Virus record (IMG/VR): IMGVR_UViG_3300025815_000006
Coordinates: 1 to 28,671 of that record
Reading direction: 5' to 3' (one strand)
Source: a virus
DNA length: 28,671 bases
Part shown: positions 2,061 through 16,832 of the stretch, piece by piece
How the letters are laid out: the number at the start of each line of letters is the position of its first letter
Numbering within the stretch: position 1 is the first letter of the stretch
The notes under the pieces: generated by a model
Seen by the model: only the letters and a program-made list of their open reading frames with translations
Told to the model about the DNA's origin: nothing
Databases searched by the model: none
Program-made: the position numbers and the translations under genes

Positions 2061-3059
2061 TTACTTAAAAGCCTGTATAAGACTCTCAAGCGTTGTTTTT
2101 ATTTCTTCGGAATTGTCAACGTCACGTTGATTGATTGATTTTATACCCCCCGATATAATTGTTTTAGCTTCTTTTTGAGAAAGACCAGCATCACGCAAAG
2201 TTCTTTCTAAAGCCCTTGGGTTTATATTACCATTTTCTTGCTTTACGTTCAAAACCTCTGCTTCATCGTTCATCGGGAACGTAACAAAGCTAACTTCTAC
2301 TAATTTAGAAAAGCTTTTTATAATCCGTATACTTTTCTTATTATCTATTTCATATTCTTTTACATAATAACCAATTGACATTGAGTCAATAGCACCGCTT
2401 TTAACTTCTTCGTACGTGTCTTTTCCGAGCGTAGTATTAATAAATTTACCTTCAACAACAAGCCCTTTTTCATCTTCATATATATTTGTGATTACCCCGA
2501 CCACTTTCTTATGATCGTGTTGATATAATAGTTTCGGCATTTTGCCTTTTTTAGCTGACTCAACAACATCATAAAAAGCACCTCTTTGAATTAAATCATT
2601 GCCGTGATCGATATTCCCAGTCGTAGCCCCATAAGCTTTAAATGTCATTTCTTCACTATCTTGCTTTACTTCAATATTTAACCCAAAATTCTTAAACTCT
2701 TTTTTCTCACTCATCCGGTTTCGTTCCTCTCTAAATTCTTTTGATTTTTTTATTGCCCAGTCGATACCGCTTGTACCACCCCATAGCAACCAGGCTATTG
2801 TTCCAGCAGTCTGACCACCGTCAACCTCTCGTTTTTCCGGTTGATAATTTTTTCTATGTCTATTAAATGATGCCATTCTTTTTATAGTTGACTCACTTAA
2901 TGACTTGCCATTTGACAAATCTCTAGCTCTTGCGACACCTACATCAGTACCTCCCCTACCCCATTTTTTACGCAATTCTAACCCACGCAAAGCATTATTC
3001 TGAGCACTTTTTGGGGGTATCGTGTCTATATCTGATAAAGCCTTTATATATTTATTCAT
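2061..3059 (-). CDS. Prohead protease (S78-like) with extra N-terminal domain
   Basis: A 332-residue capsid maturation protease. Residues from about 125 on form the HK97-type serine protease: the FKAYGATTGNIDHGNDLI segment, a histidine motif LLYQHDHKKVVG (H181/H183) and a serine motif AIDSMSIGYY (S226/S228). Residues 1-115 are a separate domain (PPKSAQNNALRGLELRKKWG, ending in AWLLWGGTSGIDWAIKK) found fused to some phage proteases. An internal ATG at residue 116 (MSEKKEF) has a plausible ribosome site (GAGGA about 10 nt upstream), so a shorter protease-only form may also be made. It overlaps the Mu F-like gene by 8 bp. Confidence 0.9.
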   Translation of the reverse strand: MNKYIKALSDIDTIPPKSAQNNALRGLELRKKWGRGGTDVGVARARDLSNGKSLSESTIKRMASFNRHRKNYQPEKREVDGGQTAGTIAWLLWGGTSGIDWAIKKSKEFREERNRMSEKKEFKNFGLNIEVKQDSEEMTFKAYGATTGNIDHGNDLIQRGAFYDVVESAKKGKMPKLLYQHDHKKVVGVITNIYEDEKGLVVEGKFINTTLGKDTYEEVKSGAIDSMSIGYYVKEYEIDNKKSIRIIKSFSKLVEVSFVTFPMNDEAEVLNVKQENGNINPRALERTLRDAGLSQKEAKTIISGGIKSINQRDVDNSEEIKTTLESLIQAFK

Positions 3060-3819
3060 ATGTTAAAAAGCACCTGCAGTTAATAACATTTGATGCACTC
3101 CCACTACTATCCCCTGGATACATTAATTTCTCATCATTTACCAAAAAACTTTCATCCATATCAACTTTTTGCCCATCAGCTTTCCGATGACTAGAACGTG
3201 TTCGCTCATCTTCTGTAGTGTTCCAAACTTTTTTAAATTCAATATTTAACTCATTTGATATTGATTGCGTACTTTCAATACTTGCCCAGTTAGCCGACGA
3301 ATGTACTTCTGTTCTGCTGATTAATTCAGCTCTACTTCTTGATATGCCAGCCTTTTCTTTAATGAATTTTGCTATTTCTTTACTTGACAAATTATCTTTA
3401 ATACCCTCAGCAATAATATTTTGAACATCTTTTCTTGTAGTATCTGTTAACTGTACACTTAAATCAGCACCTTTTTTCAGTATATAATCTATAGAAAGTT
3501 CTTCAAAATCTTGTAAAGCGTCTTTTTTTTCATATATTATATTTCTTGATTTTTTGATAGAATTGAACTGTTTTTCACTAATAGACTCAATAGAATCGCT
3601 ATATAATCTCATTAATATTTTTTGTAGTGATTTTTTATGATCTAATAAAATTGACTCACTAATGTAATTATTTAAATTATAACTATCAGCTAGTTTATTC
3701 ATTGTTTTCTGTATTTCTCGTTTAAAAGATATTGTATACTTTGTTGAAATAATATCAATTAAGCGTAAAAACCTTCTTTGCTCTAATTGCCTTTGTCGCT
3801 TACTCTTCGATATCGTCAT
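3052..3819 (-). CDS. Mu F-like minor head protein
   Basis: A 255-residue phage head morphogenesis protein (SPP1 gp7 / Mu F family), an internal head protein that acts with the portal. The C-terminal half has the family signatures: RAELISRTEVHSSANWASI, then WNTTEDERTRSSHRKADGQ, MYPGDSSGSASNVINCRC and an aromatic end. The N-terminal half is lysine-rich and helical. It overlaps the portal gene by 20 bp and the protease gene by 8 bp, consistent with coupled translation in the order portal, Mu F, protease, capsid. Confidence 0.93.
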   Translation of the reverse strand: MTISKSKRQRQLEQRRFLRLIDIISTKYTISFKREIQKTMNKLADSYNLNNYISESILLDHKKSLQKILMRLYSDSIESISEKQFNSIKKSRNIIYEKKDALQDFEELSIDYILKKGADLSVQLTDTTRKDVQNIIAEGIKDNLSSKEIAKFIKEKAGISRSRAELISRTEVHSSANWASIESTQSISNELNIEFKKVWNTTEDERTRSSHRKADGQKVDMDESFLVNDEKLMYPGDSSGSASNVINCRCFLTYE

Positions 3820-7008: not shown

Positions 7009-7347
7009 ATGATAAACTTAAATACAATATTTCCAGCATCGCATTTATATAATCAAGAAAAATATAAATACGCTACAGAGAAAGATTTTTATACTGATAT
7101 TGCTAAAAATATAAGCGAAGATTATGAGTTAATGATTTCGAAATTAATATTAAAGAATATATTATTAGAAGAATATGAAGAAGATATATTTAAATCAGAA
7201 TTGCCTTTATCAAAGAAATTAAAATTAACTAAAATAACGAAAATGGATGTTGAGCAAATTAATAGTATTTTAGAAGATGAATTTGAATTATTTGTTTCTA
7301 ACGAAAAAGCAGATATGCAAGAAATATATTTCAATTCATACTGTTAA
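7009..7347 (+). CDS. Hypothetical acidic protein
   Basis: A 112-residue protein, first gene of the short rightward operon facing the late operon. I do not recognise it. It is rich in Glu, Lys, Leu and Ile and predicted mostly helical, with no signal peptide, membrane segment or cysteine motif. The ribosome site (AAGGGAG within AAAACAAGGGAG) is the leader found before several early genes, so it is probably expressed early. It precedes a small HTH gene, so a control role is possible but unproven. Confidence 0.8.
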   Translation: MINLNTIFPASHLYNQEKYKYATEKDFYTDIAKNISEDYELMISKLILKNILLEEYEEDIFKSELPLSKKLKLTKITKMDVEQINSILEDEFELFVSNEKADMQEIYFNSYC

Positions 7348-7363
7348 TAAAGGAGAAAGTAAA

Positions 7364-7531
7364 ATGCCAAAAATTTTAAGCGATTCACAAGTAAAAGAAA
7401 GAATAAAATTAATTATCAGGTTAAGAGCGCGAGTAAAGCCGATGAAATGGGCAGATGTAGCTAGAGAAATAGGTATCAACGAAAAAAGCCTGTATTTTTT
7501 CAGAGCTAGATATCTAAAGGAAACAATTTAA
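7364..7531 (+). CDS. Small helix-turn-helix protein, candidate regulator
   Basis: A 55-residue basic protein starting at ATG 7364 behind AGGAG. A longer reading from 7277 would overlap the previous gene and has no ribosome site. The sequence MKWADVAREIGINEKSLYFF followed by RARYLKE is a helix-turn-helix: 'ADVAREIGI' as the first helix and turn, 'NEKSLYFFRARY' as the recognition helix. It fills most of a minimal DNA-binding domain. It lies next to two inverted repeats at 6838-6864 and 6951-6975 and is the nearest candidate to bind them; that link is inference. Confidence 0.8.
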   Translation: MPKILSDSQVKERIKLIIRLRARVKPMKWADVAREIGINEKSLYFFRARYLKETI

Positions 7532-7542
7532 GGAGTAAAACA

Positions 7543-7755
7543 ATGGATAGATTTTCAGGCAGTTTTAAAGATTTTTTAAATTTATTAAAAATTGGGTCAC
7601 ATAATACTTGCGACAAAAAAAATAATAAAAACAAAGATAATGCAACAAATAAAAATATAGATAATAACTGTAACAATATTCGAAATACAAACTATATTGA
7701 AGTAAATATTGATTTTATATATGAAAATCATTCAGTTAATTTTTCACTAAATTAA
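7543..7755 (+). CDS. Hypothetical Asn/Lys-rich protein
   Basis: A 70-residue protein of unknown function, third gene of the rightward operon, 11 bp after the HTH gene with a good ribosome site (AAGGAG). The middle (residues about 24-50) is a low-complexity run of Asn, Lys and Asp, flanked by a short helical N-terminus (FSGSFKDFLNLLKIG) and a beta-like C-terminus (YIEVNIDFIYENHSVNFSLN). The composition follows the AT-rich codon bias. No motif is recognised. Confidence 0.65.
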   Translation: MDRFSGSFKDFLNLLKIGSHNTCDKKNNKNKDNATNKNIDNNCNNIRNTNYIEVNIDFIYENHSVNFSLN

Positions 7756-7770
7756 GACAATACAAATAAT

Positions 7771-8187
7771 ATGAAAAATTTATATATATATATATTATTA
7801 TTTATTTATTTATTTATTACTAGCAATATTTTATGCACCACAAAAATAAATTTAAATGTAAAAATGTATTCTGGCATAGAAATCGGTAAAATTGAAAATG
7901 GAAATGGATTTATGAACTTAAAATACTTTGATATTGCAATTAAAAACAAAAAGTTTAAATCTGAATTTACACTAAATACTGGTTTTACATCAAATAGAAA
8001 ATCATTATTAAAATACAATCATTTTATTAACACATTTAGAAACAAAACCACTTATTACATAACAAATAATTTAGGTATATTTTTCTCTACATCATTTTCA
8101 AATAAAATACAAGGTAGGAATAATTACGTATCATTTTTCACAGAAGATAACTATCAATCGATAGGCATTGATTTTATATTTATGTAA
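7771..8187 (+). CDS. Exported protein, possible small outer-membrane beta-barrel
   Basis: A 138-residue protein with an N-terminal signal peptide: Lys-3, then a hydrophobic stretch to about residue 21, then CTTKIN. The cysteine lacks a good lipobox. The rest alternates polar and hydrophobic or aromatic residues in strand-length blocks (NVKMYSGIEIGKI, SEFTLNTGFTS, LGIFFSTSFSNK) and ends in IGIDFIFM, like the terminal strand of outer-membrane barrels. Phages such as lambda encode such a protein (Lom), and others use them for superinfection exclusion. There is no clear ribosome site. Its 3' end overlaps the convergent gene at 8154 by 34 bp. Confidence 0.7.
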   Translation: MKNLYIYILLFIYLFITSNILCTTKINLNVKMYSGIEIGKIENGNGFMNLKYFDIAIKNKKFKSEFTLNTGFTSNRKSLLKYNHFINTFRNKTTYYITNNLGIFFSTSFSNKIQGRNNYVSFFTEDNYQSIGIDFIFM

Positions 8188-9626: not shown

Positions 9627-10442
9627 TTACCCTCTTTTCTGTAATTCATTAACAAACTCATATATCTCATTCACAGATTCTGTTTCGTATTGTTCGTTAT
9701 TTTTTTTATTAACGATTTTATTGTAATTATTCTCACTGTACCTTAATAGCCAATTCCTAGAGGCCGCTACCCAGCTCTTCATTGGCTTTCCTGCAACTTT
9801 CCACCCGTTAGATTCATAATAGTTGAAAAATTGCTCTGACTGCAAAAATAAAGCCCTCTCATTAACATTTAGACTCTTAGAAAATGCATATTTAGATATT
9901 TCTTTAAAAATATCATTAATTTCAGGCTTAACAAACTTTTTCTTTTTATCGATACTTTCAAAAATATTAAATTGCTCATTTTTATCACTTTCTTTTTTAG
10001 ATATTAATTTATTAATATCTTTTTTCTTTATATTATTATCATTCTTATCATTATTGTTTGTGCGCGCTATCGTTTCACTATCGTTTCGCCATCGTTTCGC
10101 TATCGTTTCGCTATCGTTTCTTGATTCTTGATATTTATCATAATTTACGCACGAAATTAACGTTCCTTTTCCGATCGCTATCGTTTCGATCATTGAATCA
10201 TTTTGTAAAAATTTTATTGCACGTGTGATTGTCGATCTATGAATATTAATTTGCTCTGATAATTTACTAAGAGAAGTATAAAAAGACCCCCTTTTTATCA
10301 ATGTTTTTTGATTATTGATAATGATACTCTTATCTTTATGATTACATCTAAGTAAAATCTGAATAAATACTAAAAAATATGATTGATTTGTCATTAAATG
10401 ATGATCTAATAATGATCGATGAAGTTTTATATAACCCTCCAT
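9627..10442 (-). CDS. Replication initiator, lambda O-like, containing the origin
   Basis: A 271-residue initiator. The N-terminal ~85 residues form a winged-helix DNA-binding domain typical of phage O/DnaD-like proteins (YIKLHRSLLDH at the start, LSEQINIHRSTITRAIKFLQ as the helix-turn-helix). The middle is a linker that encodes the iterons (NDSETIAKRWRNDSETIAR) and an Asn/Lys-rich stretch. The C-terminal domain has FFNYYESNGWKVAGKPMKSW then VAASRNWL, a signature of replication proteins that contact the helicase or its loader. The domain order matches lambda O: DNA-binding domain, origin-coding linker, partner-binding domain. Confidence 0.88.
   Translation of the reverse strand: MEGYIKLHRSLLDHHLMTNQSYFLVFIQILLRCNHKDKSIIINNQKTLIKRGSFYTSLSKLSEQINIHRSTITRAIKFLQNDSMIETIAIGKGTLISCVNYDKYQESRNDSETIAKRWRNDSETIARTNNNDKNDNNIKKKDINKLISKKESDKNEQFNIFESIDKKKKFVKPEINDIFKEISKYAFSKSLNVNERALFLQSEQFFNYYESNGWKVAGKPMKSWVAASRNWLLRYSENNYNKIVNKKNNEQYETESVNEIYEFVNELQKRG
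9999..10187. other. Replication origin: 11-bp iterons plus AT-rich inverted repeat
   Basis: Five tandem 11-bp units of consensus GCTATCGTTTC occupy 10066-10120 (starts at 10066, 10077, 10088, 10099 and 10110; units 2 and 3 each carry one change). A sixth exact copy lies at 10177-10187. Next to them is an AT-rich tract (about 9990-10060) with a perfect inverted repeat: AGATATTAAT (9999-10008), TT, ATTAATATCT (10011-10020). The 11-bp period places every unit on one DNA face. The location in the middle of the initiator gene, with the AT-rich part on the C-terminal-coding side, mirrors lambda ori. Confidence 0.82.
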
Positions 10443-10728: not shown

Positions 10729-10759
10729 AAATTCATTAAAAAACAAGGGAGTAAATATA

Positions 10760-11362
10760 ATGAAAGAATTATTAAGAAAACTACAAAAGGTTCAATCAGA
10801 GTTAAAATCTAAAAAAAAGAGGTATAATTCATTTGGTGAATATAAATATAGATCATGTGAGGATATCCTAGAAGATGTCAAACCACTTCTTTTTGAAAAT
10901 GGATTATTTATCTTAATTTCAGATGATATTGAATATTATCATGGTAGGCATTATGTTAAATCAACAATTAGTGTATATGATATTTCATCAAATACAGGTA
11001 CTTTTTTAGAGGTACATGCATATGCAAGGGAGGAAGAATCAAAAAAAAAGATGGACGCAAGTCAAATAACTGGTTCAACGTCATCATATGCAAGAAAATA
11101 CGCATTAAACGGCCTTTTTGCTATCGATGATGCAAAAGACAGTGATGCGACAAATAAACATGAAAATTACAAAAAAAAAGAAAAACAACATGTAAATGAA
11201 GATAAAAAAAGAGAATATCTAGAAAAAATGCAAAAATCTAATTCTATAGAAGAGTTAAAGGAATTATGGAGTAACGATATTCCGCAAGAATATCGAATAG
11301 AATTATCATATGAAAAAAATATATTAAAAGAAAAACTTGATAAAGAAGCGAAAAGCAAATAG
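10760..11362 (+). CDS. erf: ERF-family single-strand annealing protein
   Basis: A 200-residue recombinase of the ERF family (P22 Erf), which anneals complementary single strands during phage recombination. The family core is complete: SKKKRYNSFGEYKYRSCEDI, VKPLLFENGLFI, MDASQITGSTSSYARKYALN and the end motif GLFAIDDAKDSDA. The last 60 residues are a charged helical tail. I chose ATG 10760 because AAGGGAG lies 8 nt upstream; the longer frame from 10700 starts inside the promoter. It should work with the YqaJ exonuclease (12352) and SSB (12998). Confidence 0.95.
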   Translation: MKELLRKLQKVQSELKSKKKRYNSFGEYKYRSCEDILEDVKPLLFENGLFILISDDIEYYHGRHYVKSTISVYDISSNTGTFLEVHAYAREEESKKKMDASQITGSTSSYARKYALNGLFAIDDAKDSDATNKHENYKKKEKQHVNEDKKREYLEKMQKSNSIEELKELWSNDIPQEYRIELSYEKNILKEKLDKEAKSK

Positions 11363-11372
11363 GTGAAATTTT

Positions 11373-12272
11373 ATGAAAGAATTAAACAAGTATAACTATA
11401 TTATAGAAAAAGACACATTAACTATTTTTGATGAGGGGGAATTAAGATTAGATTCTATTTTAAATAAAAAAATAAAAAAATTAAACGCTCCTAATTCTGA
11501 TGCGATTTATTGCCAAAATAACAATTTAACGGAATTAAACGCTCCTAATGCTAAAAGAATTTCTTGCTACAATAACAAATTAACAGAATTAAACGCCCCT
11601 AATGCTAAAGGAATTTTTTGTTGGAATAACAATTTAACAGAATTAAATGCCCCGAACGCTAAAGGAATTGATTGTTCTTATAACAATTTAACAGAATTAA
11701 ATGCCCCTAATGCTAAAGTAATTTATTGTTCTTATAACAATTTAACAGAATTAAATGCCCCGAACGCTAAAGAAATTTATTGCTGGAATAACAAATTAAC
11801 AGAATTAAACGCTACTAAGGCTGAGATAATTGATTGCCGTCATAACAAATTAACAGAATTAAACGCTACTAAGGCTGAGATAATTGATTGCCGTCATAAC
11901 AAATTAACAGAATTAAACGCCCCTAATGCTAAAGTAATTTATTGTTCTTATAACAATTTAACAGAATTAAACGCACCTAATGTTGAAAGAATTTATTGCT
12001 GTAATAACAAATTAACAGAATTAAACGCCCCTAATGCCAAAAGAATTTATTGTTCTTATAATAAATTAACAGAATTAAACGCCCCTAATGCTAAAATAAT
12101 TGATTGCCGTCATAACAAATTAACAGAATTAAACGCCCCTAATGCTGAAAGAATTTATTGTTACAATAACAATTTAACAGAATTAAACGTTCCGAATGCA
12201 GATTTAATTTATTGTTACAATAACAATTTAACAGAATTAAATGATACCAATACTAAGCTAGAATCTTGGTAA
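11373..12272 (+). CDS. LRR protein 1: fourteen 18-residue leucine-rich repeats
   Basis: A 299-residue protein made of a 33-residue N-terminal cap (YNYIIEKDTLTIFDEGELRL) and 14 full 18-residue repeats plus a 14-residue partial. The consensus is LTELNAPNAKxIxCxxNx. Rephased, AKxIxCxxNxL fits the LRR core LxxLxLxxNxL with Ala, Ile and Cys at hydrophobic positions. Positions 11, 13, 15, 16 and 18 vary; the rest is nearly fixed. There is no signal peptide or membrane segment, so it probably acts inside the host cell. It starts 10 bp after the ERF gene (ribosome site AGGTG) and has a paralogue at 15475. Its function is unknown; a protein-binding role is inferred from the fold. Confidence 0.9.
   Translation: MKELNKYNYIIEKDTLTIFDEGELRLDSILNKKIKKLNAPNSDAIYCQNNNLTELNAPNAKRISCYNNKLTELNAPNAKGIFCWNNNLTELNAPNAKGIDCSYNNLTELNAPNAKVIYCSYNNLTELNAPNAKEIYCWNNKLTELNATKAEIIDCRHNKLTELNATKAEIIDCRHNKLTELNAPNAKVIYCSYNNLTELNAPNVERIYCCNNKLTELNAPNAKRIYCSYNKLTELNAPNAKIIDCRHNKLTELNAPNAERIYCYNNNLTELNVPNADLIYCYNNNLTELNDTNTKLESW
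11472..12269 (+). repeat. Tandem 54-bp coding repeats of LRR gene 1
   Basis: Fourteen 54-bp units (TTAACAGAATTAAACGCC... pattern) plus a partial unit. The seventh and eighth units are identical at DNA level (ACTAAGGCTGAGATAATT with GATTGCCGTCATAACAAA), pointing to a recent one-unit duplication. Differences between other units fall mainly in the codons for variable positions. Short-read assembly could miscount such units. Confidence 0.93.
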
Positions 12273-12291
12273 CAATTTAACAATATAATGG

Positions 12292-12320
12292 TTGATAATA
12301 AATTATTATTATGTTAAATT
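12292..12320 (+). promoter_or_regulatory. Early promoter cassette before YqaJ exonuclease
   Basis: TTGATA (12292-12297), 17 bp, TAAATT (12315-12320), inside the conserved stretch GTTAAATTATATAT, followed by AAAACAAGGGAGTT just before the ATG at 12352. Promoter boxes, spacing and leader match the cassettes at 14296 and 15416. Confidence 0.65.
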
Positions 12321-12351
12321 ATATATGAATTAAAACAAGGGAGTTATAAAA

Positions 12352-12981
12352 ATGATAGTACATAAAATAGAGCAAAAAAGTGAAGAATGGAACGAGATTA
12401 GAAAAGGCAAGCTAACCGCCAGTAATTTTTCTAAAATATTAACAAAAACAGGCAAACTATCTTCACAATATATCGATGTTATCTATGAAAATTTAGCAGA
12501 GTTGCATACATGCCAAAGTGAATACCAGCCTACAAATTTTTATATGGAAAGGGGGTTAGAATTAGAAGAATACGCTATTTTAAACTATGAAAGTATATCA
12601 GGCGAAATAGTTGATAAAATTGGGTTTATTGAGTCTGAATGTGGTTTACTTGGGGTTTCACCCGACGGGTTGGTCGGTAAGGATGGTATTATTGAGGTTA
12701 AGTGTTTGATGCAAAAAAAACACATTGCTTTGTTACTTGGAGAATATAAAGAAATAGATACTTATATACCTCAGATGCAATTCCAGTTGTTTGTATCTAA
12801 AAGGAAATGGGTTGATTTTATTTCTTATAATCCCGATTTTATAGAGCCTGAAAAAAGAATATTTATAAAAAGGATATTTATTGATGAGGAATATCAGAAA
12901 TTAATTTCAAAATCTATAGATCAATACAAAGAAAAATTTATTGAATTAAGTAATTTATTGGGTAAAAATAATATATTTTAA
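12352..12981 (+). CDS. YqaJ/lambda-exonuclease-family recombination nuclease
   Basis: A 209-residue 5'-3' exonuclease of the YqaJ family (PD-(D/E)XK fold), the partner of the ERF annealing protein in a Red-like recombination pair. It begins with the family motif IRKGKLTASNFSKIL, then FYMERGLELEEYA (E67). The active site is GVSPDGLVG (D105) and GIIEVKCLM (E115, K117), followed by YIPQMQFQLFV. All key residues are present. It has its own promoter cassette and a strong ribosome site (AAGGGAG). It would resect double-strand ends to give single strands for ERF and SSB. Confidence 0.95.
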   Translation: MIVHKIEQKSEEWNEIRKGKLTASNFSKILTKTGKLSSQYIDVIYENLAELHTCQSEYQPTNFYMERGLELEEYAILNYESISGEIVDKIGFIESECGLLGVSPDGLVGKDGIIEVKCLMQKKHIALLLGEYKEIDTYIPQMQFQLFVSKRKWVDFISYNPDFIEPEKRIFIKRIFIDEEYQKLISKSIDQYKEKFIELSNLLGKNNIF

Positions 12982-12997
12982 AATAGGAGTAATAAAA

Positions 12998-13327
12998 ATG
13001 AATCAAGTAATTTTAATAGGTAATCTTACTCGCGATGTTGAGTGCAATGCTGTGAGTACAGGCGATTTAGTAGCCAAATTTTCTATAGCTGTAAATAGGG
13101 GGAAAGATCATGTTGACTTTATAAACTGCGAGGCATGGGGTAAATTAGCAGATAATCTAAATCAGTACTGTAAAAAGGGGTCAAAAATAGCGGTTATTGG
13201 ATCGATTAGAGTAGATAATTATGAAAAAGATGGAGAAAAAAGAACATATTATAAAGTTAATTGTTTCTCTATTGAATTTTTAAGTAAAAAAGAATTAACA
13301 GACAATAAGATAGAATCTGATTTCTAA
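12998..13327 (+). CDS. ssb: Single-stranded DNA-binding protein
   Basis: A 109-residue OB-fold SSB: start MNQVILIGNLTRDVE, AKFSIAVNRGKDHVDFINCE, AWGKLADNLNQYCKKGSKIA, VIGSIRVDNYEKDGEKRTYY. It is shorter than bacterial SSB because the flexible linker is missing, but it keeps a short acidic end (ESDF) similar to the partner-binding tip. It follows the exonuclease gene by 16 bp with its own ribosome site (AGGAG). It acts in replication and in the ERF/YqaJ recombination pathway. Confidence 0.95.
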   Translation: MNQVILIGNLTRDVECNAVSTGDLVAKFSIAVNRGKDHVDFINCEAWGKLADNLNQYCKKGSKIAVIGSIRVDNYEKDGEKRTYYKVNCFSIEFLSKKELTDNKIESDF

Positions 13328-13329
13328 TA

Positions 13330-13360
13330 TGTGGACGGACAAGGGGGTGAACCGTCCACA
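13330..13360 (+). other. Perfect 9-bp hairpin with Shine-Dalgarno-like loop
   Basis: TGTGGACGG (13330-13338) and CCGTCCACA (13352-13360) pair perfectly around a 13-nt loop, ACAAGGGGGTGAA. It starts 2 bp after the SSB stop. It is very GC-rich for this genome. No U-tract follows on either strand, so it does not look like a classical terminator. It may set mRNA ends or bind a protein through the exposed AAGGGGG loop. Confidence 0.65.
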
Positions 13361-13407
13361 AAAATAATTTAACATAATTATCGATAAAATAAAATAAGAG
13401 GGTAATA

Positions 13408-13716
13408 ATGGTAGTGAATAAGATAAATAAATCAATTTTATCAGAAGCTTTGAGAATAACAGATGAAAGAATATTGACTTATGGTGATCCAGTGGAAAAT
13501 TTGGAAAATATAGCTAAATTATGGAATACATATATAAAATCAAAAAAAATAAATTATGAAAATGATTTATGTATTATTACTAGCAAAGATGTGGCTATGA
13601 TGATGGTTTTATTGAAAGTAGCACGAGAATTAAACTCAACTAATAAAGATAATTTAATAGATATAGCTGGATACTGTCGTTTAGCGTCTGTAATAGAGGG
13701 GTTTGAAAATATATAA
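13408..13716 (+). CDS. Phage protein resembling DUF6378
   Basis: A 102-residue all-helical protein. The sequence ILSEALRITDERILTYGDP, then ENIAKLWNTYI, then DVAMMMVLLKVARELN and LIDIAGYCRLASVIEG match a widespread phage family I associate with DUF6378. Members usually occur near nucleotide-metabolism or recombination genes; the enzymatic role is not established. The Asp/Glu-bearing helices recall MazG/dUTPase-type helical bundles, but I cannot show a catalytic site. It has a ribosome site GAGGG. Its stop overlaps the ATG of a short frame (TAATG). Confidence 0.85.
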   Translation: MVVNKINKSILSEALRITDERILTYGDPVENLENIAKLWNTYIKSKKINYENDLCIITSKDVAMMMVLLKVARELNSTNKDNLIDIAGYCRLASVIEGFENI

Positions 13717-13889
13717 TGTTAAGTAATACACTCTTTAAATACGGTTATAATTATAGTAAAAAGAGCAAAAAAATTTCAGAGTTTCATAGCAATGTTTTTT
13801 CAGATAAAAAATGTAGTATTTATTCAATTAAGAAAATAAACTTTATCAATTTTCTGAAATTAAAAATAAATATTTTTTTTAATAAATAA
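13716..13889 (+). CDS. Possible small Lys-rich protein (57 aa)
   Basis: A 57-residue frame whose ATG shares its A with the preceding gene's TAA (TAATG). It is rich in Lys, Asn, Phe and Ile (LSNTLFKYGYNYSKKSKKIS), which also follows from AT-rich DNA, so composition alone does not prove it is coding. AGAGGGG lies 13 nt upstream, a little far for a ribosome site. If it is not a gene, this 187-bp stretch is an unexplained gap in an otherwise dense operon. Confidence 0.4.
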   Translation: MLSNTLFKYGYNYSKKSKKISEFHSNVFSDKKCSIYSIKKINFINFLKLKINIFFNK

Positions 13890-13903
13890 GTTATATTTTT
13901 CTT

Positions 13904-14299
13904 ATGAAACCGTCGAACTTTATAACTATTGATGAATTTAAAAAAATGTCCAAACAATATGATTTATCTAACCTTTTTTACGCTGAAATTAATCGTCATA
14001 AAAAAAATCTTTTATTTGGAATTGAGCGTGAATTTAGATTCCATAAAAAAAGAATGTGGCGCTTTGATTTAGCTTGGCCTGATTACAATGTGGCTGTTGA
14101 AATTGACGGTGGCCAATTTAAAAAATTTGGTGGACGGCATGCAAGAGACTCGGATAGAGAAAAGATGAATAATGCTGTGATTTTAGGTTGGGCAGTTCTA
14201 AGATTCTCTGGGGAGATGATAAAAAAAGACCCTGTTTTGTGCATAGATCAACTCAATACTTTAATTGAAAACAAAAAGTTAATGTACAAAAGTGATTGA
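13904..14299 (+). CDS. PD-(D/E)XK nuclease-like protein (DUF559/Vsr type)
   Basis: A 131-residue small nuclease-like protein common in phages. The core is GIEREFRFHKKRMWRFDLAW (E41, D55), VAVEIDGGQ (E66, D68), FGGRHARDSDREKMNNAVIL and GWAVLRFSGEMI, the Vsr/DUF559 arrangement of the PD-(D/E)XK fold. The catalytic acids appear conserved. The substrate is unknown; structure-specific or mismatch nicking during recombination is plausible given ERF, YqaJ and SSB upstream. The ribosome site is weak. The promoter for the next gene overlaps its 3' end. Confidence 0.8.
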   Translation: MKPSNFITIDEFKKMSKQYDLSNLFYAEINRHKKNLLFGIEREFRFHKKRMWRFDLAWPDYNVAVEIDGGQFKKFGGRHARDSDREKMNNAVILGWAVLRFSGEMIKKDPVLCIDQLNTLIENKKLMYKSD

Positions 14300-14324
14300 C
14301 AACGGATTGTTATTTTGTTAAATT
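14296..14324 (+). promoter_or_regulatory. Early promoter cassette (best match)
   Basis: A perfect TTGACA (14296-14301), 17 bp, TAAATT (14319-14324), within GTTAAATTATATAT, then AAAACAAGGGAGTT before the ATG at 14358. The -35 overlaps the stop codon of the nuclease gene. It shares about 30 bp of -10 and leader sequence with the cassettes at 12292 and 15416. Confidence 0.75.
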
Positions 14325-14357
14325 ATATATAAATTAAAACAAGGGAGTTTAAAAAAA

Positions 14358-14603
14358 ATGATACCAAGAATTTACAATAACGGAGAACCGTTTTTAACAG
14401 GCATAGATTACAGTAAGAATAATACAAGCCATAATGTTACGCCAAAAATTAAAAAAACTAATCACTATAGTATGAATAATTTTACGGCAAACCCTATTAT
14501 GCTAGCACGACAACACAAAGAAGCTGTAAAGACAATTATTTTATTTTTGTTGCTTGGAATTAGTTTTACATCGGGGTTTATAATCGGTAAAAAATGGAGT
14601 TAA
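14358..14603 (+). CDS. Small membrane protein, C-terminal anchor
   Basis: An 81-residue protein with a polar Asn/Lys-rich N-terminal region of about 55 residues and one C-terminal transmembrane helix (TIILFLLLGISFTSGFIIGK) ending KKWS. This is a tail-anchored topology with the N-terminus in the cytoplasm. The family is not recognised. It is directly behind its own promoter cassette, so it is expressed early. A host-takeover or exclusion role is possible, but there is no direct evidence. Confidence 0.8.
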   Translation: MIPRIYNNGEPFLTGIDYSKNNTSHNVTPKIKKTNHYSMNNFTANPIMLARQHKEAVKTIILFLLLGISFTSGFIIGKKWS

Positions 14604-14608
14604 CGCAT

Positions 14609-14989
14609 ATGTGTAATACTAAATTTATAAAAAGAAAAGAATTAGCAAAACTATTAAATATAAACGCAATGACATTATGGAAATTAATCAAACGGGATAA
14701 TGATTTCCCCGTAAATTATATAGGAAACAAAATACTATTTGATAAAAATCAAGTTTTAAATTATTTATCCAATAGATATGTTATTGAAGATTTTACAAAC
14801 ATAATAAGTTTAATAGACATAAAAGAATCGGCAAAAATATTAAGGGTCAGTGATACAGTAATGAGGCGGTTAGCAAAAGACGACATAGACCTGCAATATT
14901 TTAGAGTTGGTAGATTGTATAGGTTTTCTAAAGAAAACTTAATTAAATACGTTAATAATAAAATATACAGGAGTAGTAAAAATGGATAG
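14609..14989 (+). CDS. Tandem AlpA-like double-HTH regulator
   Basis: A 126-residue protein with two consecutive MerR/AlpA-type winged helices. The first is KFIKRKELAKLLNINAMTLW, then KLIKRDNDFPVNYIGNKILF; the second is DIKESAKILRVSDTVMRRLA, then LQYFRVGRLYRFSKENLIKY. The start is ATG 14609, behind GGAG with 9 nt spacing; an in-frame ATG at 14594 overlaps the previous gene and has no ribosome site. Two DNA-binding domains in one chain suggest recognition of a two-part or direct-repeat site. It probably regulates phage promoters. It overlaps the dUTPase gene by 8 bp. Confidence 0.85.
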   Translation: MCNTKFIKRKELAKLLNINAMTLWKLIKRDNDFPVNYIGNKILFDKNQVLNYLSNRYVIEDFTNIISLIDIKESAKILRVSDTVMRRLAKDDIDLQYFRVGRLYRFSKENLIKYVNNKIYRSSKNG

Positions 14990-15383
14990 TTTAGATAAAA
15001 TTTTTGAAGGACAAAAAGAATTAAATAAAAAATTAGTGCCTTGGATTGAAGAAGATTTAAAAAAAATAGAGGGGAAAATTGATTGGATATTTAAGTTTAA
15101 ACTTGCAATGGATCAAGAAATAGCGGAGATGTCAGATTGTTTACCTTGGAAGTGGTGGTCGAAAAACAAGCCAATCGATTACCAAAATTTAAAAGTTGAA
15201 TTAGTTGATATTTTGTTTTTTTGGACATCTATCTGTTTATCGGCTGGATTTTCAGCAAAAGAAATGAGAGAAGCTTACTTTAAAAAGTTAATATTAAATC
15301 ATAAAAGAGCTGATAACGGATACAAAGAAGGTACTTATAATAAATATGATAAAAACGGTTTAGAAGATAATCGTAGCATTTAA
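14982..15383 (+). CDS. Dimeric (all-alpha) dUTPase
   Basis: A 133-residue enzyme of the all-alpha NTP pyrophosphatase class, hydrolysing dUTP to dUMP and pyrophosphate to keep uracil out of phage DNA and supply dTMP synthesis. The metal-binding motifs are visible: AMDQEIAEMSDCLPWKWWSK (E46, E49), LKVELVDILFFW (E73, D76) and LILNHKRADNGYKEGTY (N106, R109, GY). It is slightly short for the family but complete in its motifs. It overlaps the regulator gene by 8 bp with an AGGAG ribosome site. Confidence 0.92.
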   Translation: MDSLDKIFEGQKELNKKLVPWIEEDLKKIEGKIDWIFKFKLAMDQEIAEMSDCLPWKWWSKNKPIDYQNLKVELVDILFFWTSICLSAGFSAKEMREAYFKKLILNHKRADNGYKEGTYNKYDKNGLEDNRSI

Positions 15384-15415
15384 ATCTAATATCAATAATT
15401 GATATGTTTAAGTGG

Positions 15416-15444
15416 TTTACAATGAATTGATTTTATGTTAAATT
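15416..15444 (+). promoter_or_regulatory. Early promoter cassette before LRR gene 2
   Basis: TTTACA (15416-15421), 17 bp, TAAATT (15439-15444) in GTTAAATTATATAT, followed by AAAAACAAGGAGG before the ATG at 15475. Geometry is identical to the cassettes at 12292 and 14296. It gives LRR gene 2 its own transcription start. Confidence 0.7.
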
Positions 15445-15474
15445 ATATATAATAAAAACAAGGAGGAAAATAAA

Positions 15475-16263
15475 ATGAAAGAATTAAGTCAACATAACTA
15501 TATTATAGAAAAAGATACATTAACTATTTTTGATGATGGGGCATTAATATTAGATTCTATTTTAAATAAAAAAATAAAAAAATTAAACGCTCCTAAAGCT
15601 AAAGAAATTTATTGTAGTGACAACAACTTAACAGAATTAAACGCTCCTAATGCTAAAATAATTGATTGTTACAATAACAAATTAACAGAATTAAATGCAC
15701 AGAACGCTAAAGAAATTTATTGTAGTTACAACAACTTAACAGAATTAAACGCTCATAAAGCTGAGATAATTTATTGTTACAATAACAAATTAACAGAATT
15801 AAATGCACAGAACGCTAAAGAAATTATTTGTAGTTACAACAACTTAACAGAATTAAACGCTCATAAAGCTGAGATAATTTATTGTTACAATAACAAATTA
15901 ACAGAATTAAATGCTCCTAAAGCTGAAAGAATTATTTGCTATAGTAACAATTTAACAGAATTAAATGCTCCTAAAGCTGAAAGAATTATTTGCTATAGTA
16001 ACAATTTAACAGAATTAAATGCTCCTAAAGCTGAAAGAATTAATTGTGAAAATAACAAATTAACAGAATTAAACGCTCCTAATGCTGAAAGAATTTATTT
16101 TTCTTATAACAACTTAACAGAATTAAACGCTCCTAAAGCTGAGATAATTTACTGCGCAAATAACAAATTAACAAAGTTAAATGCCCCGAATGCTAAAGAA
16201 ATTTATTGTTTAGGTAATAAACTAGAAGAATTAAATGCACCAAACGCTGAAATAATAAAATAG
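15475..16263 (+). CDS. LRR protein 2: twelve 18-residue leucine-rich repeats
   Basis: A 262-residue paralogue of the 11373 gene. The 33-residue cap is nearly the same (HNYIIEKDTLTIFDDGALIL), then 12 full repeats and a 13-residue partial. The repeat consensus is LTELNAPxAxxIxCxxNx; repeat 10 has Phe in place of the usual Cys (IYFSYNN). Repeats 3-4 and 5-6 are a duplicated pair and repeats 7 and 8 are identical. No export signal. It has its own promoter cassette and a strong AAGGAGG ribosome site, suggesting high early expression. As with LRR 1, I infer a protein-binding scaffold; the target is unknown. Confidence 0.9.
   Translation: MKELSQHNYIIEKDTLTIFDDGALILDSILNKKIKKLNAPKAKEIYCSDNNLTELNAPNAKIIDCYNNKLTELNAQNAKEIYCSYNNLTELNAHKAEIIYCYNNKLTELNAQNAKEIICSYNNLTELNAHKAEIIYCYNNKLTELNAPKAERIICYSNNLTELNAPKAERIICYSNNLTELNAPKAERINCENNKLTELNAPNAERIYFSYNNLTELNAPKAEIIYCANNKLTKLNAPNAKEIYCLGNKLEELNAPNAEIIK
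15574..16260 (+). repeat. Tandem 54-bp coding repeats of LRR gene 2
   Basis: Twelve 54-bp units plus a partial unit. Units 3-4 and 5-6 form a 108-bp duplication with only two base differences (AAATTTATTTGT-type versus AAATTATTTGT-type junction). Units 7 and 8 are identical. The N-terminal coding part and the first unit are nearly identical to LRR gene 1, so the two genes are also direct repeats of each other, about 4.1 kb apart. Confidence 0.92.
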
Positions 16264-16319: not shown

Positions 16320-16424
16320 ATGATTATTCAAATAATAGAAATTCTAATTCTAATAACTCCATTAATTTTAATTATAAGTTTATTCGACAGCATAAAAGAT
16401 GAATTGAAAAATAAAAATATTTGA
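16320..16424 (+). CDS. Tiny membrane protein (34 aa)
   Basis: A 34-residue frame with a good ribosome site (AAGGGG, 7 nt before ATG). One hydrophobic helix (IQIIEILILITPLILIISLF) fills most of it, followed by a charged end (DSIKDELKNKNI). It is the last gene of the rightward early region. Such single-span miniproteins are common in phages; the function is unknown. Confidence 0.7.
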   Translation: MIIQIIEILILITPLILIISLFDSIKDELKNKNI

Positions 16425-16508
16425 TAGTGCTTAGCTTGTGAGAAGAAAGCTTGATATATAAAGTTAAGAAGTATTTTAGATAAATGTTAAGTGAAGGCTA
16501 AGCACTAT
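16424..16508. other. Long-range 12-bp perfect inverted repeat; candidate structured RNA or terminator
   Basis: ATAGTGCTTAGC (16424-16435) and GCTAAGCACTAT (16497-16508) are perfect complements enclosing 61 nt. The element starts at the last base of the 34-residue gene's stop and lies between the convergent ends of the early and late operons (16424 and 16533). The interior has only weak helices (AGCTT/AAGCT, ATTT/AAAT). No U-tract follows. It could be a bidirectional transcript end, an RNA with a closing stem, or a protein-binding site. Confidence 0.6.
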
Positions 16509-16532
16509 TTAGTTATAAAAACTATAACATAT

Positions 16533-16832
16533 TTATAAATTATTTAAAAAATCATTTAATATTTTTTTGATATTTTCGTTATTGTTTTGTATGTCTAAAT
16601 CTAAACGTTTTAGGTTGTCATTCATTTTATTTATAGATTCGATATAAGAATACTCATTTTCTGAGTATTTAATTGATAACTCTTCTATTCTGTCTTCTAT
16701 ATCTGATAATCTAATAGCGAATAAGTCAATAAAAACGTCTTCTTTTTTTTTAGATAATGATTGGTTATTTTTTATATCAGATACAGTATCATTGAAATAT
16801 CGAATTAATTTAATGATATCTTCGGAATTCAT
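16533..16832 (-). CDS. Hypothetical coiled-coil protein at end of late operon
   Basis: A 99-residue, highly charged helical protein with heptad-like repeats (SIKYSENEYSYIESINKMND, NLKRLDLDIQNNNENIKKIL) and no membrane segment or signal peptide. It is the last gene of the late operon, downstream of the endolysin and two membrane-anchored proteins, and overlaps the preceding gene by 4 bp (ATGA). Its place suggests a lysis accessory or late cytoplasmic protein. No family is recognised. Confidence 0.75.
   Translation of the reverse strand: MNSEDIIKLIRYFNDTVSDIKNNQSLSKKKEDVFIDLFAIRLSDIEDRIEELSIKYSENEYSYIESINKMNDNLKRLDLDIQNNNENIKKILNDFLNNL

What the first reader, a model, noticed from the sequence alone, without database searches (positions are those of the whole stretch)
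11373..16263. Two early paralogous proteins made of hypervariable 18-residue LRRs
The genes at 11373 and 15475 each encode a 33-residue cap and 14 or 12 uninterrupted 18-residue repeats. The core AKxIxCxxNxL fits the LRR consensus but the unit is shorter than the usual 20-29 residues, and a Cys recurs in nearly every unit. Only positions 11, 13, 15, 16 and 18 vary, as expected if a fixed scaffold displays a variable face. The genes are in the early region, without export signals, so they are unlikely to be virion adhesins. A cytoplasmic binder of host proteins (for example an anti-defence inhibitor or decoy) is a reasonable hypothesis. I know of no described phage system with this pair.
Basis: partly seen in the sequence, partly recalled or inferred. 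Interest (0 to 1): 0.78.

Follow-up and report, generated by a model that had tools for sequence, protein, structure and literature searches.

The report
Swappable phage proteins of 18-residue LRRs
A small phage carries two genes for rod-like repeat proteins with a very short repeat and a variable, tyrosine-rich face; they sit in two cargo slots where related phages carry a predicted anti-phage system or a DNA methyltransferase, so they are probably proteins that bind a host or rival-virus target inside the cell.

Summary
Genes 11373-12272 (LRR-A, 14 units) and 15475-16263 (LRR-B, 12 units) share a cap and exact 18-residue units. AlphaFold2 predicts leucine-rich-repeat (LRR) solenoids with high confidence. 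The unit is a shortened form of the Cys subtype of "IRREKO" LRRs (normally 21 residues). "Only five positions vary" is overstated: three more vary moderately.

New here: both genes lie in cargo slots between conserved early genes. In relatives slot A (ERF/YqaJ) holds an ABC-3C-like system and slot B (dUTPase_2/34-aa gene) a DNA methyltransferase. LRR-A is DNA-identical over 738 nt in a phage whose genes downstream are about 85% identical; the first 93 nt of LRR-B follow unrelated DNA in another. LRR-A occurs with a methyltransferase in slot B, so the pair is not obligate. One LRR-B allele lacks exactly two units. Three further viral contigs, probably two phages, carry 18-residue Cys-LRRs, one upstream of ERF-YqaJ-SSB.

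Best reading: early, cytoplasmic, mobile binding proteins, most likely for counter-defence or host takeover. Predicted fold and cargo status are well supported; the target is unknown.

The parts
11373..12272 (+). LRR-A, 299 aa: 33-36 residue cap, 14 full 18-residue Cys-LRR units, partial last unit
   Evidence: AlphaFold2 pLDDT 93.7, pTM 0.88
15475..16263 (+). LRR-B, 262 aa: same cap, 12 full 18-residue units, partial last unit
   Evidence: AlphaFold2 pLDDT 94.5, pTM 0.87
11373..11480 (+). N-terminal cap of LRR-A (99 of 108 nt identical to the cap of LRR-B)
   Evidence: a 54-aa query (cap plus first unit) found only two matches at E 8 in 50,697 phage records
15475..15582 (+). N-terminal cap of LRR-B
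10757..11362 (+). ERF-family annealing protein, upstream border of slot A; its stop lies 10 nt before LRR-A, so LRR-A is probably in its transcript (inferred)
   Evidence: Pfam ERF E 8e-39; sequence
12352..12981 (+). YqaJ-family exonuclease, downstream border of slot A
   Evidence: Pfam YqaJ E 7.9e-18
14982..15383 (+). dUTPase_2 family protein, upstream border of slot B
   Evidence: Pfam E 2.5e-17
15416..15466 (+). Putative promoter and ribosome-binding site of LRR-B: TTTACA-17-TAAATT with TG before the -10, and AAGGAGG; its TTATGTTAAATTATATA (15433-15449) recurs before YqaJ (exact) and before 14358 (1 mismatch)
   Evidence: the generic promoter scan as a whole shows no excess over shuffles
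16320..16424 (+). 34-aa hydrophobic small ORF, downstream border of slot B; identical in L037 where slot B holds a methyltransferase
   Evidence: a similar reading frame in L035 is seen by eye and by DNA (72.8% over 184 columns between L037 and L035), but L035 is not in the tblastn listing
16423..16509 (.). Long hairpin between the convergent early and late gene blocks (probable terminator, inferred)
   Evidence: fold of 16410-16540: -30.3 kcal/mol, z -4.6; a similar inverted repeat is visible in L035

Best explanation
LRR-A and LRR-B are cytoplasmic, single-domain LRR solenoids of a shortened Cys subtype, made early in infection as mobile cargo of a small tailed phage. A fixed scaffold (Leu, Ile, Cys, Asn) presents a Tyr/Asn/Lys/Arg/Ser-rich face that binds a macromolecule in the infected cell. 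The most likely use is counter-defence or host takeover: binding and blocking, or sequestering, a host or rival-element protein. Unit number and face are altered by unequal exchange between units, and whole genes move between related phages by recombination into two slots. Shown: repeats, predicted fold, slots and their different contents, identical genes in diverged surroundings. Inferred: early timing, location in the cytoplasm, which face binds, unequal exchange. Hypothesis: the counter-defence role and the target.
For: Fold; PDB matches YopM, SspH2, InlJ (VIA Z 23.1, 21.1 and 22.7 over 291, 268 and 293 residues). Scaffold under constraint: in A x B unit pairs the 13 other positions have pN 0.075 and pS 0.380, against pN 0.395 and pS 0.428 at the five face positions. 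Face composition: 30 Tyr, 26 Asn, 13 Lys, 11 Arg and 11 Ser of 130. Slot A in L035 holds MC6 (E 2.3e-11) plus DUF2326 (E 1e-36), the latter also PADLOC PDC-M68B (E 1.2e-191). Slot B in L037 holds an N6/N4 DNA methyltransferase (E 3.5e-33). LRR-A is identical over 738 of 738 nt in L020, whose aligned pieces at 12980-15182 are 86.5% and 84.9% identical to the window. LRR-B in L029 is identical over the 93 nt held but follows unrelated upstream DNA. Exact loss of two units in L028. LRR-B shares a promoter motif with early genes. Independent phages with 18-residue Cys-LRRs, one upstream of ERF-YqaJ-SSB.
Against: No PADLOC model matches either protein (E <= 0.01), and no tool here tests binding or anti-defence. 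LRR-A shows almost no allelic diversity: 11 of 15 full-length copies are DNA-identical to the window and the other four carry one or two changed codons, which does not look like an arms race in these samples. Face pN/pS is near 1, so relaxed constraint explains it as well as diversification. LRRs serve many roles. Target and host are undetermined.
Confidence: 0.45

Rival explanations
1. Accessory factor of the phage's own recombination or replication: the LRR binds ERF, YqaJ, SSB or a host nuclease such as RecBCD/AddAB, as lambda Gam does beside Bet and Exo (lambda comparison recalled).
For: LRR-A lies between ERF and YqaJ. Another phage has its 18-residue LRR upstream of ERF-YqaJ-SSB, about 2.9 kb and two ORFs away. 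21-residue Cys-LRRs follow YqaJ-SSB in L250 and lie 1.8 kb after YqaJ in L236, and beside a DnaB-like helicase in a Vibrio phage.
Against: L035 keeps ERF, YqaJ and an SSB-like ORF but has an ABC-3C-like system in that slot. LRR-B lies far from ERF/YqaJ. Only 2 of 80 held loci of the 21-residue scan have a YqaJ hit, and no background rate was measured.
Confidence: 0.22
2. Inter-phage competition: the protein protects the infected cell from other phages or satellites (exclusion), like the defence genes found in phage hotspots.
For: The same slots hold a predicted defence system and a methyltransferase. Phage hotspots of antiviral genes are described (PMC9122126; only the start of the abstract seen, in the listing).
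Against: No effector domain found in either LRR protein. No lysogeny gene was recognised among the window proteins scanned (several late-block ORFs were not scanned), so lasting protection of a lysogen is less likely.
Confidence: 0.15
3. A virion or cell-surface adhesin.
For: Internalin-annotated proteins are among the sequence matches in the plasmid collection (4 of 8 records), and LRR-B is next to the late block.
Against: No evident signal peptide or anchor (inspection). Both genes are on the + strand with the replication genes; recognised structural genes are on the - strand.
Confidence: 0.05
4. Degenerate, nearly neutral repeat genes carried along by hitch-hiking.
For: Face pN/pS near 1; exact unit duplications; near-identical alleles across lineages.
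Against: Strong conservation of the scaffold despite synonymous change, a putative own promoter and ribosome-binding site for LRR-B, and presence in 16 contigs with 16 different metagenome numbers.
Confidence: 0.1

Closest known systems
IRREKO LRR, second (Cys) subtype, LxxLxCxxNxLxxLDLxx(N/L/x)xx (Matsushima et al. 2010, PMC2946307; outline, abstract and passages seen)
   Same: AKxIxCxxNxLTELNAPN fits positions 1-16 under the paper's wording (L may be Ala, D may be Asn). The models have short strands on two sides of each unit, as the paper predicts for this class.
   Different: 18 residues rather than 21 (the paper's one viral case, Q9YVJ1 of an entomopoxvirus, has 19; it is also a structure match, E 6.9e-5); no 10+11 nested period; in a phage rather than a bacterium.
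InlJ of Listeria (PDB 3bz5, 'includes a cysteine ladder')
   Same: Cys-bearing LRR stack; VIA Z 22.7 over 293 residues, rmsd 5.6.
   Different: InlJ is a cell-surface protein (recalled); the phage proteins have no evident export signal.
YopM / SspH LRR effectors
   Same: Short bacterial LRRs that act inside a cell on host proteins (recalled); best structure matches.
   Different: 20-residue LPx-type units, secreted into eukaryotic cells (recalled); no catalytic domain here.
21-residue Cys-LRR proteins of phages and phage contigs (Vibrio phage VB_VaC_TDDLMA; a 735-kb uncultured phage record; L236, L244, L250)
   Same: Cys-LRR arrays in phage genomes, some beside replication or recombination genes.
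   Different: Units of 21 (some 20-22) residues; a different N-terminal part.
18-residue Cys-LRR proteins of L210/L203 and L214 (found here)
   Same: Same 18-residue unit LTxLxxPxAxx(I/V)xCxxNx as the prevailing residues, in phage contigs.
   Different: Different N-terminus (L210) or a C-terminal region weakly like DUF6745 (L214, E 0.0013, below the Pfam cut-off).

Membership tests
Leucine-rich repeat proteins | tandem LxxLxLxxNxL units forming a solenoid | tested here: met
   (predicted models); Pfam LRRNT 69.1 bits for A and 45.4 for B against cut-off 25.8, while LRR_4 stays below its cut-off
IRREKO LRR (Cys subtype) | LxxLxCxxNxL core followed by xxLDL (D = Asp/Asn, L incl. Ala) | tested here: met
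   unit AKxIxCxxNxLTELNAPN against the definition in PMC2946307 section 6
IRREKO LRR (Cys subtype) | 21-residue unit | tested here: not met
   18 residues in all 26 full units
IRREKO LRR (Cys subtype) | nested 10- and 11-residue periodicity | tested here: not met
   after the 11-residue core the unit has only 7 residues
IRREKO LRR (Cys subtype) | short strands on both concave and convex sides | tested here: inconclusive
   two short strands per unit in DSSP of the models; their sides could not be measured without coordinates
Internalin (InlJ-like) | signal peptide and cell-wall anchor | tested here: not met
   N-terminus MKELNKYN..., C-terminus without anchor, by inspection; no signal-peptide program was available
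Known anti-phage defence protein (PADLOC-DB 2.0.0) | match to a model at E <= 0.01 | tested here: not met
   0 families for both proteins
Known PHROG family | convincing full-length match | tested here: not met
   only partial matches, best E 0.075 for A and 4.2e-06 (residues 41-140) for B
Anti-defence proteins | rescues phage growth against a defence system | not testable with these tools
   needs an experiment

The most novel reading that the evidence does not exclude
Phages carry a previously undescribed class of very short (18-residue) Cys-LRR binding proteins, used like interchangeable antibodies: one scaffold whose units are duplicated and lost, slotted as mobile cargo into the early recombination operon, and serving to neutralise host nucleases or defence proteins, for example as a Gam-like inhibitor made between the annealing protein and the exonuclease.
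Probability: 0.25. Interest if true: 0.75.

Novelty: new variant of a known kind. Interest (0 to 1): 0.5.

Why it matters
LRR scaffolds are standard binding modules of plant and animal immunity and of bacterial effectors. A compact cytoplasmic LRR that phages swap in the same slots as defence and methyltransferase genes would point to an understudied group of phage proteins that bind host or rival targets, and the slots themselves give a simple way to find more accessory genes of this kind.

Tried and rejected
Host: capsid, YqaJ, portal and endolysin searches and a capsid search of 249 genomes in the phylum of G003 (35 with a match at E <= 1e-20, best identity 38%) gave only distant relatives. 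A lambda J-like tail protein and the endolysin hits hint at a Gram-negative host; the host stays undetermined.

Cellular origin: a genome scan with LRR-B found 15 pattern matches and no relative (its exact peptide patterns reach close relatives only). LRR-A searched in 249, 247 and 249 genomes of three phyla gave 0, 15 and 4 genomes at E <= 1e-12; the tool warns that the empty answer shows nothing by itself. In the 15 loci looked at (L170-L184) motif spacing, where at least three motifs were found, was mostly 20-21 or multiples and never 18. Four were fetched with flanks (L185-L188); by eye all lie beside phoU-like reading frames among chromosomal genes (no family search was run on them). No cellular source of the 18-residue form was found in these searches.

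Dropped rows: of the 27 contigs of the 18-residue scan, 18 are this phage group, three (L203, L210, L214) are real 18-residue LRRs, and six (L199, L205, L208, L211, L212, L215) are not LRRs in the matched frame. Vibrio phage phiKT1024 and the Lak phage records match by tblastn, but the piece read of each showed no array of three Cys motifs.

Repeat-number change in L028 (exactly 108 nt, at adjacent blocks that are 106/108 identical) may be an assembly collapse rather than a real allele.

Literature: five searches listed no paper whose title or abstract start concerns phage LRR proteins as anti-defence factors or an 18-residue phage LRR; none of the listed papers was opened. Subscription papers and preprints are not held.

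The 'Listeria phage' LRR hits resemble internalin-type sequence (one, H93, is annotated so; the others have no annotation) and were not used.
Full report
What is there. LRR-A (11373-12272, 299 aa) and LRR-B (15475-16263, 262 aa) are intact ORFs. After a shared cap they consist of 14 and 12 full units of exactly 18 residues plus a partial unit; spacing between Cys motifs is 18 throughout, apart from one 36 in B where Cys is replaced by Phe. A three-unit pattern matches 19 times in the window and never in 100 shuffles.

Fold. AlphaFold2 with three-row alignments gives pLDDT 93.7 and pTM 0.88 for A, 94.5 and 0.87 for B, with two short strands per unit. Foldseek and VIA-align place A (B was not searched) among LRR proteins: YopM, SspH2 and InlJ, whose entry title names a cysteine ladder; viral matches are mainly giant-virus and entomopoxvirus LRR proteins. 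I had no coordinates, so the placing of variable positions on one face is inferred: in the LRR consensus LxxLxLxxNxL they are x3, x5, x7, x8 and x10, and the strand in the models begins at unit positions 8-10. Pfam LRRNT passes its cut-off, PHROGs gives no convincing match and PADLOC none.

Repeat evolution. Over A x B unit pairs the 13 other positions have pN 0.075 and pS 0.380 and the five face positions pN 0.395 and pS 0.428; within A the face has pN 0.366 and pS 0.221, within B 0.420 and 0.510. So the scaffold is strongly constrained and the face is not, which neither proves nor excludes diversifying selection; no correction for saturation was made. Units are duplicated exactly (A units at residues 145 and 163, B units at 145 and 163), and B has two adjacent two-unit blocks that match at 106 of 108 nt. 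In L028 LRR-B lacks exactly 108 nt there with near-identical flanks, which is either unequal exchange or assembly collapse.

The genome. The window ends in an exact 127-bp direct repeat, so it is probably a complete genome; GC is 30%. Recognised structural genes are on the - strand. The + strand early block holds ERF, LRR-A, YqaJ, SSB, DUF6378, DUF559, an unknown 81-aa gene, HTH, dUTPase_2 and LRR-B. LRR-A starts 10 nt after ERF. LRR-B has a good ribosome-binding site and a TTATGTTAAATTATATA element that recurs exactly before YqaJ and with one mismatch before 14358 (8 matches with up to 3 mismatches in the window against 2.34 expected). The generic promoter scan as a whole finds no excess over shuffles (32 against 43.8).

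Two cargo slots. Slot A lies between ERF and YqaJ. It holds LRR-A in the window and, as far as held, in L020. In L035 it holds small ORFs, an ABC-3C middle component (MC6) and a DUF2326 protein, the latter a full-length match to PADLOC PDC-M68B. L036 shows the same ORFs before YqaJ, but its held stretch starts after ERF and its proteins were not scanned. Slot B lies between dUTPase_2 and a 34-aa gene next to a strong hairpin. It holds LRR-B in the window; LRR-B with 10 units in L028; a DNA methyltransferase in L037; a 112-aa and a 103-aa gene in L035; and a 112-aa gene plus LRR-B in L029, whose contig ends inside LRR-B. L020 and L037 are 99.84% identical over 3,146 nt and so are probably one phage, which has LRR-A with a methyltransferase in slot B: the two LRR genes are not an obligate pair.

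Gene transfer. In L020 the held 738 nt of LRR-A and the DNA up to about 12600 are (nearly) identical to the window, while the aligned pieces at 12980-15182 are 86.5% and 84.9% identical. In L029 the held 93 nt of LRR-B are identical although the DNA before the gene is unrelated. In 15 full-length copies LRR-A is unchanged in 11; one codon differs in L016, L017 and L018 each and two in L019, one of them the start codon. So an allele is shared between lineages without diverging; this argues against fast diversification in the sampled populations.

Other phages. A scan of viral contigs for three consecutive 18-residue Cys-LRR units found 27 contigs: 18 of this group, six false matches, and three real ones. 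L210 and L203, from one metagenome number, share 119 nt at their ends inside the array and are probably one phage; its LRR protein has another N-terminal part, and ERF (E 4.7e-21), YqaJ (3.3e-22) and SSB (3.2e-30) follow about 2.9 kb downstream, after two ORFs. L214 has an 18-residue array followed by a weak DUF6745-like region (below the Pfam cut-off), next to a NinG-like gene, in a contig with a terminase. The prevailing residues in all are LTxLxxPxAxx(I/V)xCxxNx. Of 80 held loci of that scan two have YqaJ near the LRR gene, and L244 has two LRR genes in one contig. No background rate was measured, so the association with recombination genes is suggestive only.

Interpretation. Shown: repeats, predicted LRR fold, two slots with different contents, identical genes in diverged surroundings, other phages with the same unit. 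Inferred: early expression and cytoplasmic location. Hypothesis: a binder used against host or rival systems (about 0.45), a recombination or replication accessory (about 0.22), inter-phage exclusion (about 0.15). The unit resembles the Cys subtype of IRREKO LRRs (PMC2946307; outline, abstract and passages seen) but fails its 21-residue and nested-period criteria, so I call it a shortened variant, not a member. Five literature searches listed no paper evidently on this subject; none of those papers was opened.

Noticed in passing
L035:1376-3348 (similar ORFs in L036:495-2467): A related phage carries an ABC-3C-like pair (MC6 plus DUF2326, PADLOC PDC-M68B) between ERF and YqaJ.
   Followed up: partly
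L037:3413-4153: An N6/N4 DNA methyltransferase lies where LRR-B lies in the window, in a phage that otherwise keeps similar early genes.
   Followed up: partly
window 16320-16424 and 16423-16509: A 34-aa hydrophobic gene and a strong hairpin close the early block; the small gene is identical in L037.
   Followed up: partly
window 7200-8000: In L011, otherwise mostly identical to the window over the stretch compared, this part drops to 74-84% identity: a third variable region with genes of unknown function.
   Followed up: no
window 10065-10120: About five copies of an 11-bp tandem repeat inside the DnaD-like helicase loader gene.
   Followed up: no
L020:1464-1733 and L037:526-795: An 89-aa ORF between YqaJ and SSB, not at that place in the window, with an internal repeat about 66 bp apart.
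   Followed up: no
L244, about 3-580 and 2442-3220: Another viral contig with two separate 21-22-residue Cys-LRR genes, with capsid- and portal-like genes.
   Followed up: no
L185, L186, L187, L188: Cys-LRR genes with units of about 20-21 residues beside phoU-like reading frames (by eye) in four genomes of one phylum.
   Followed up: partly
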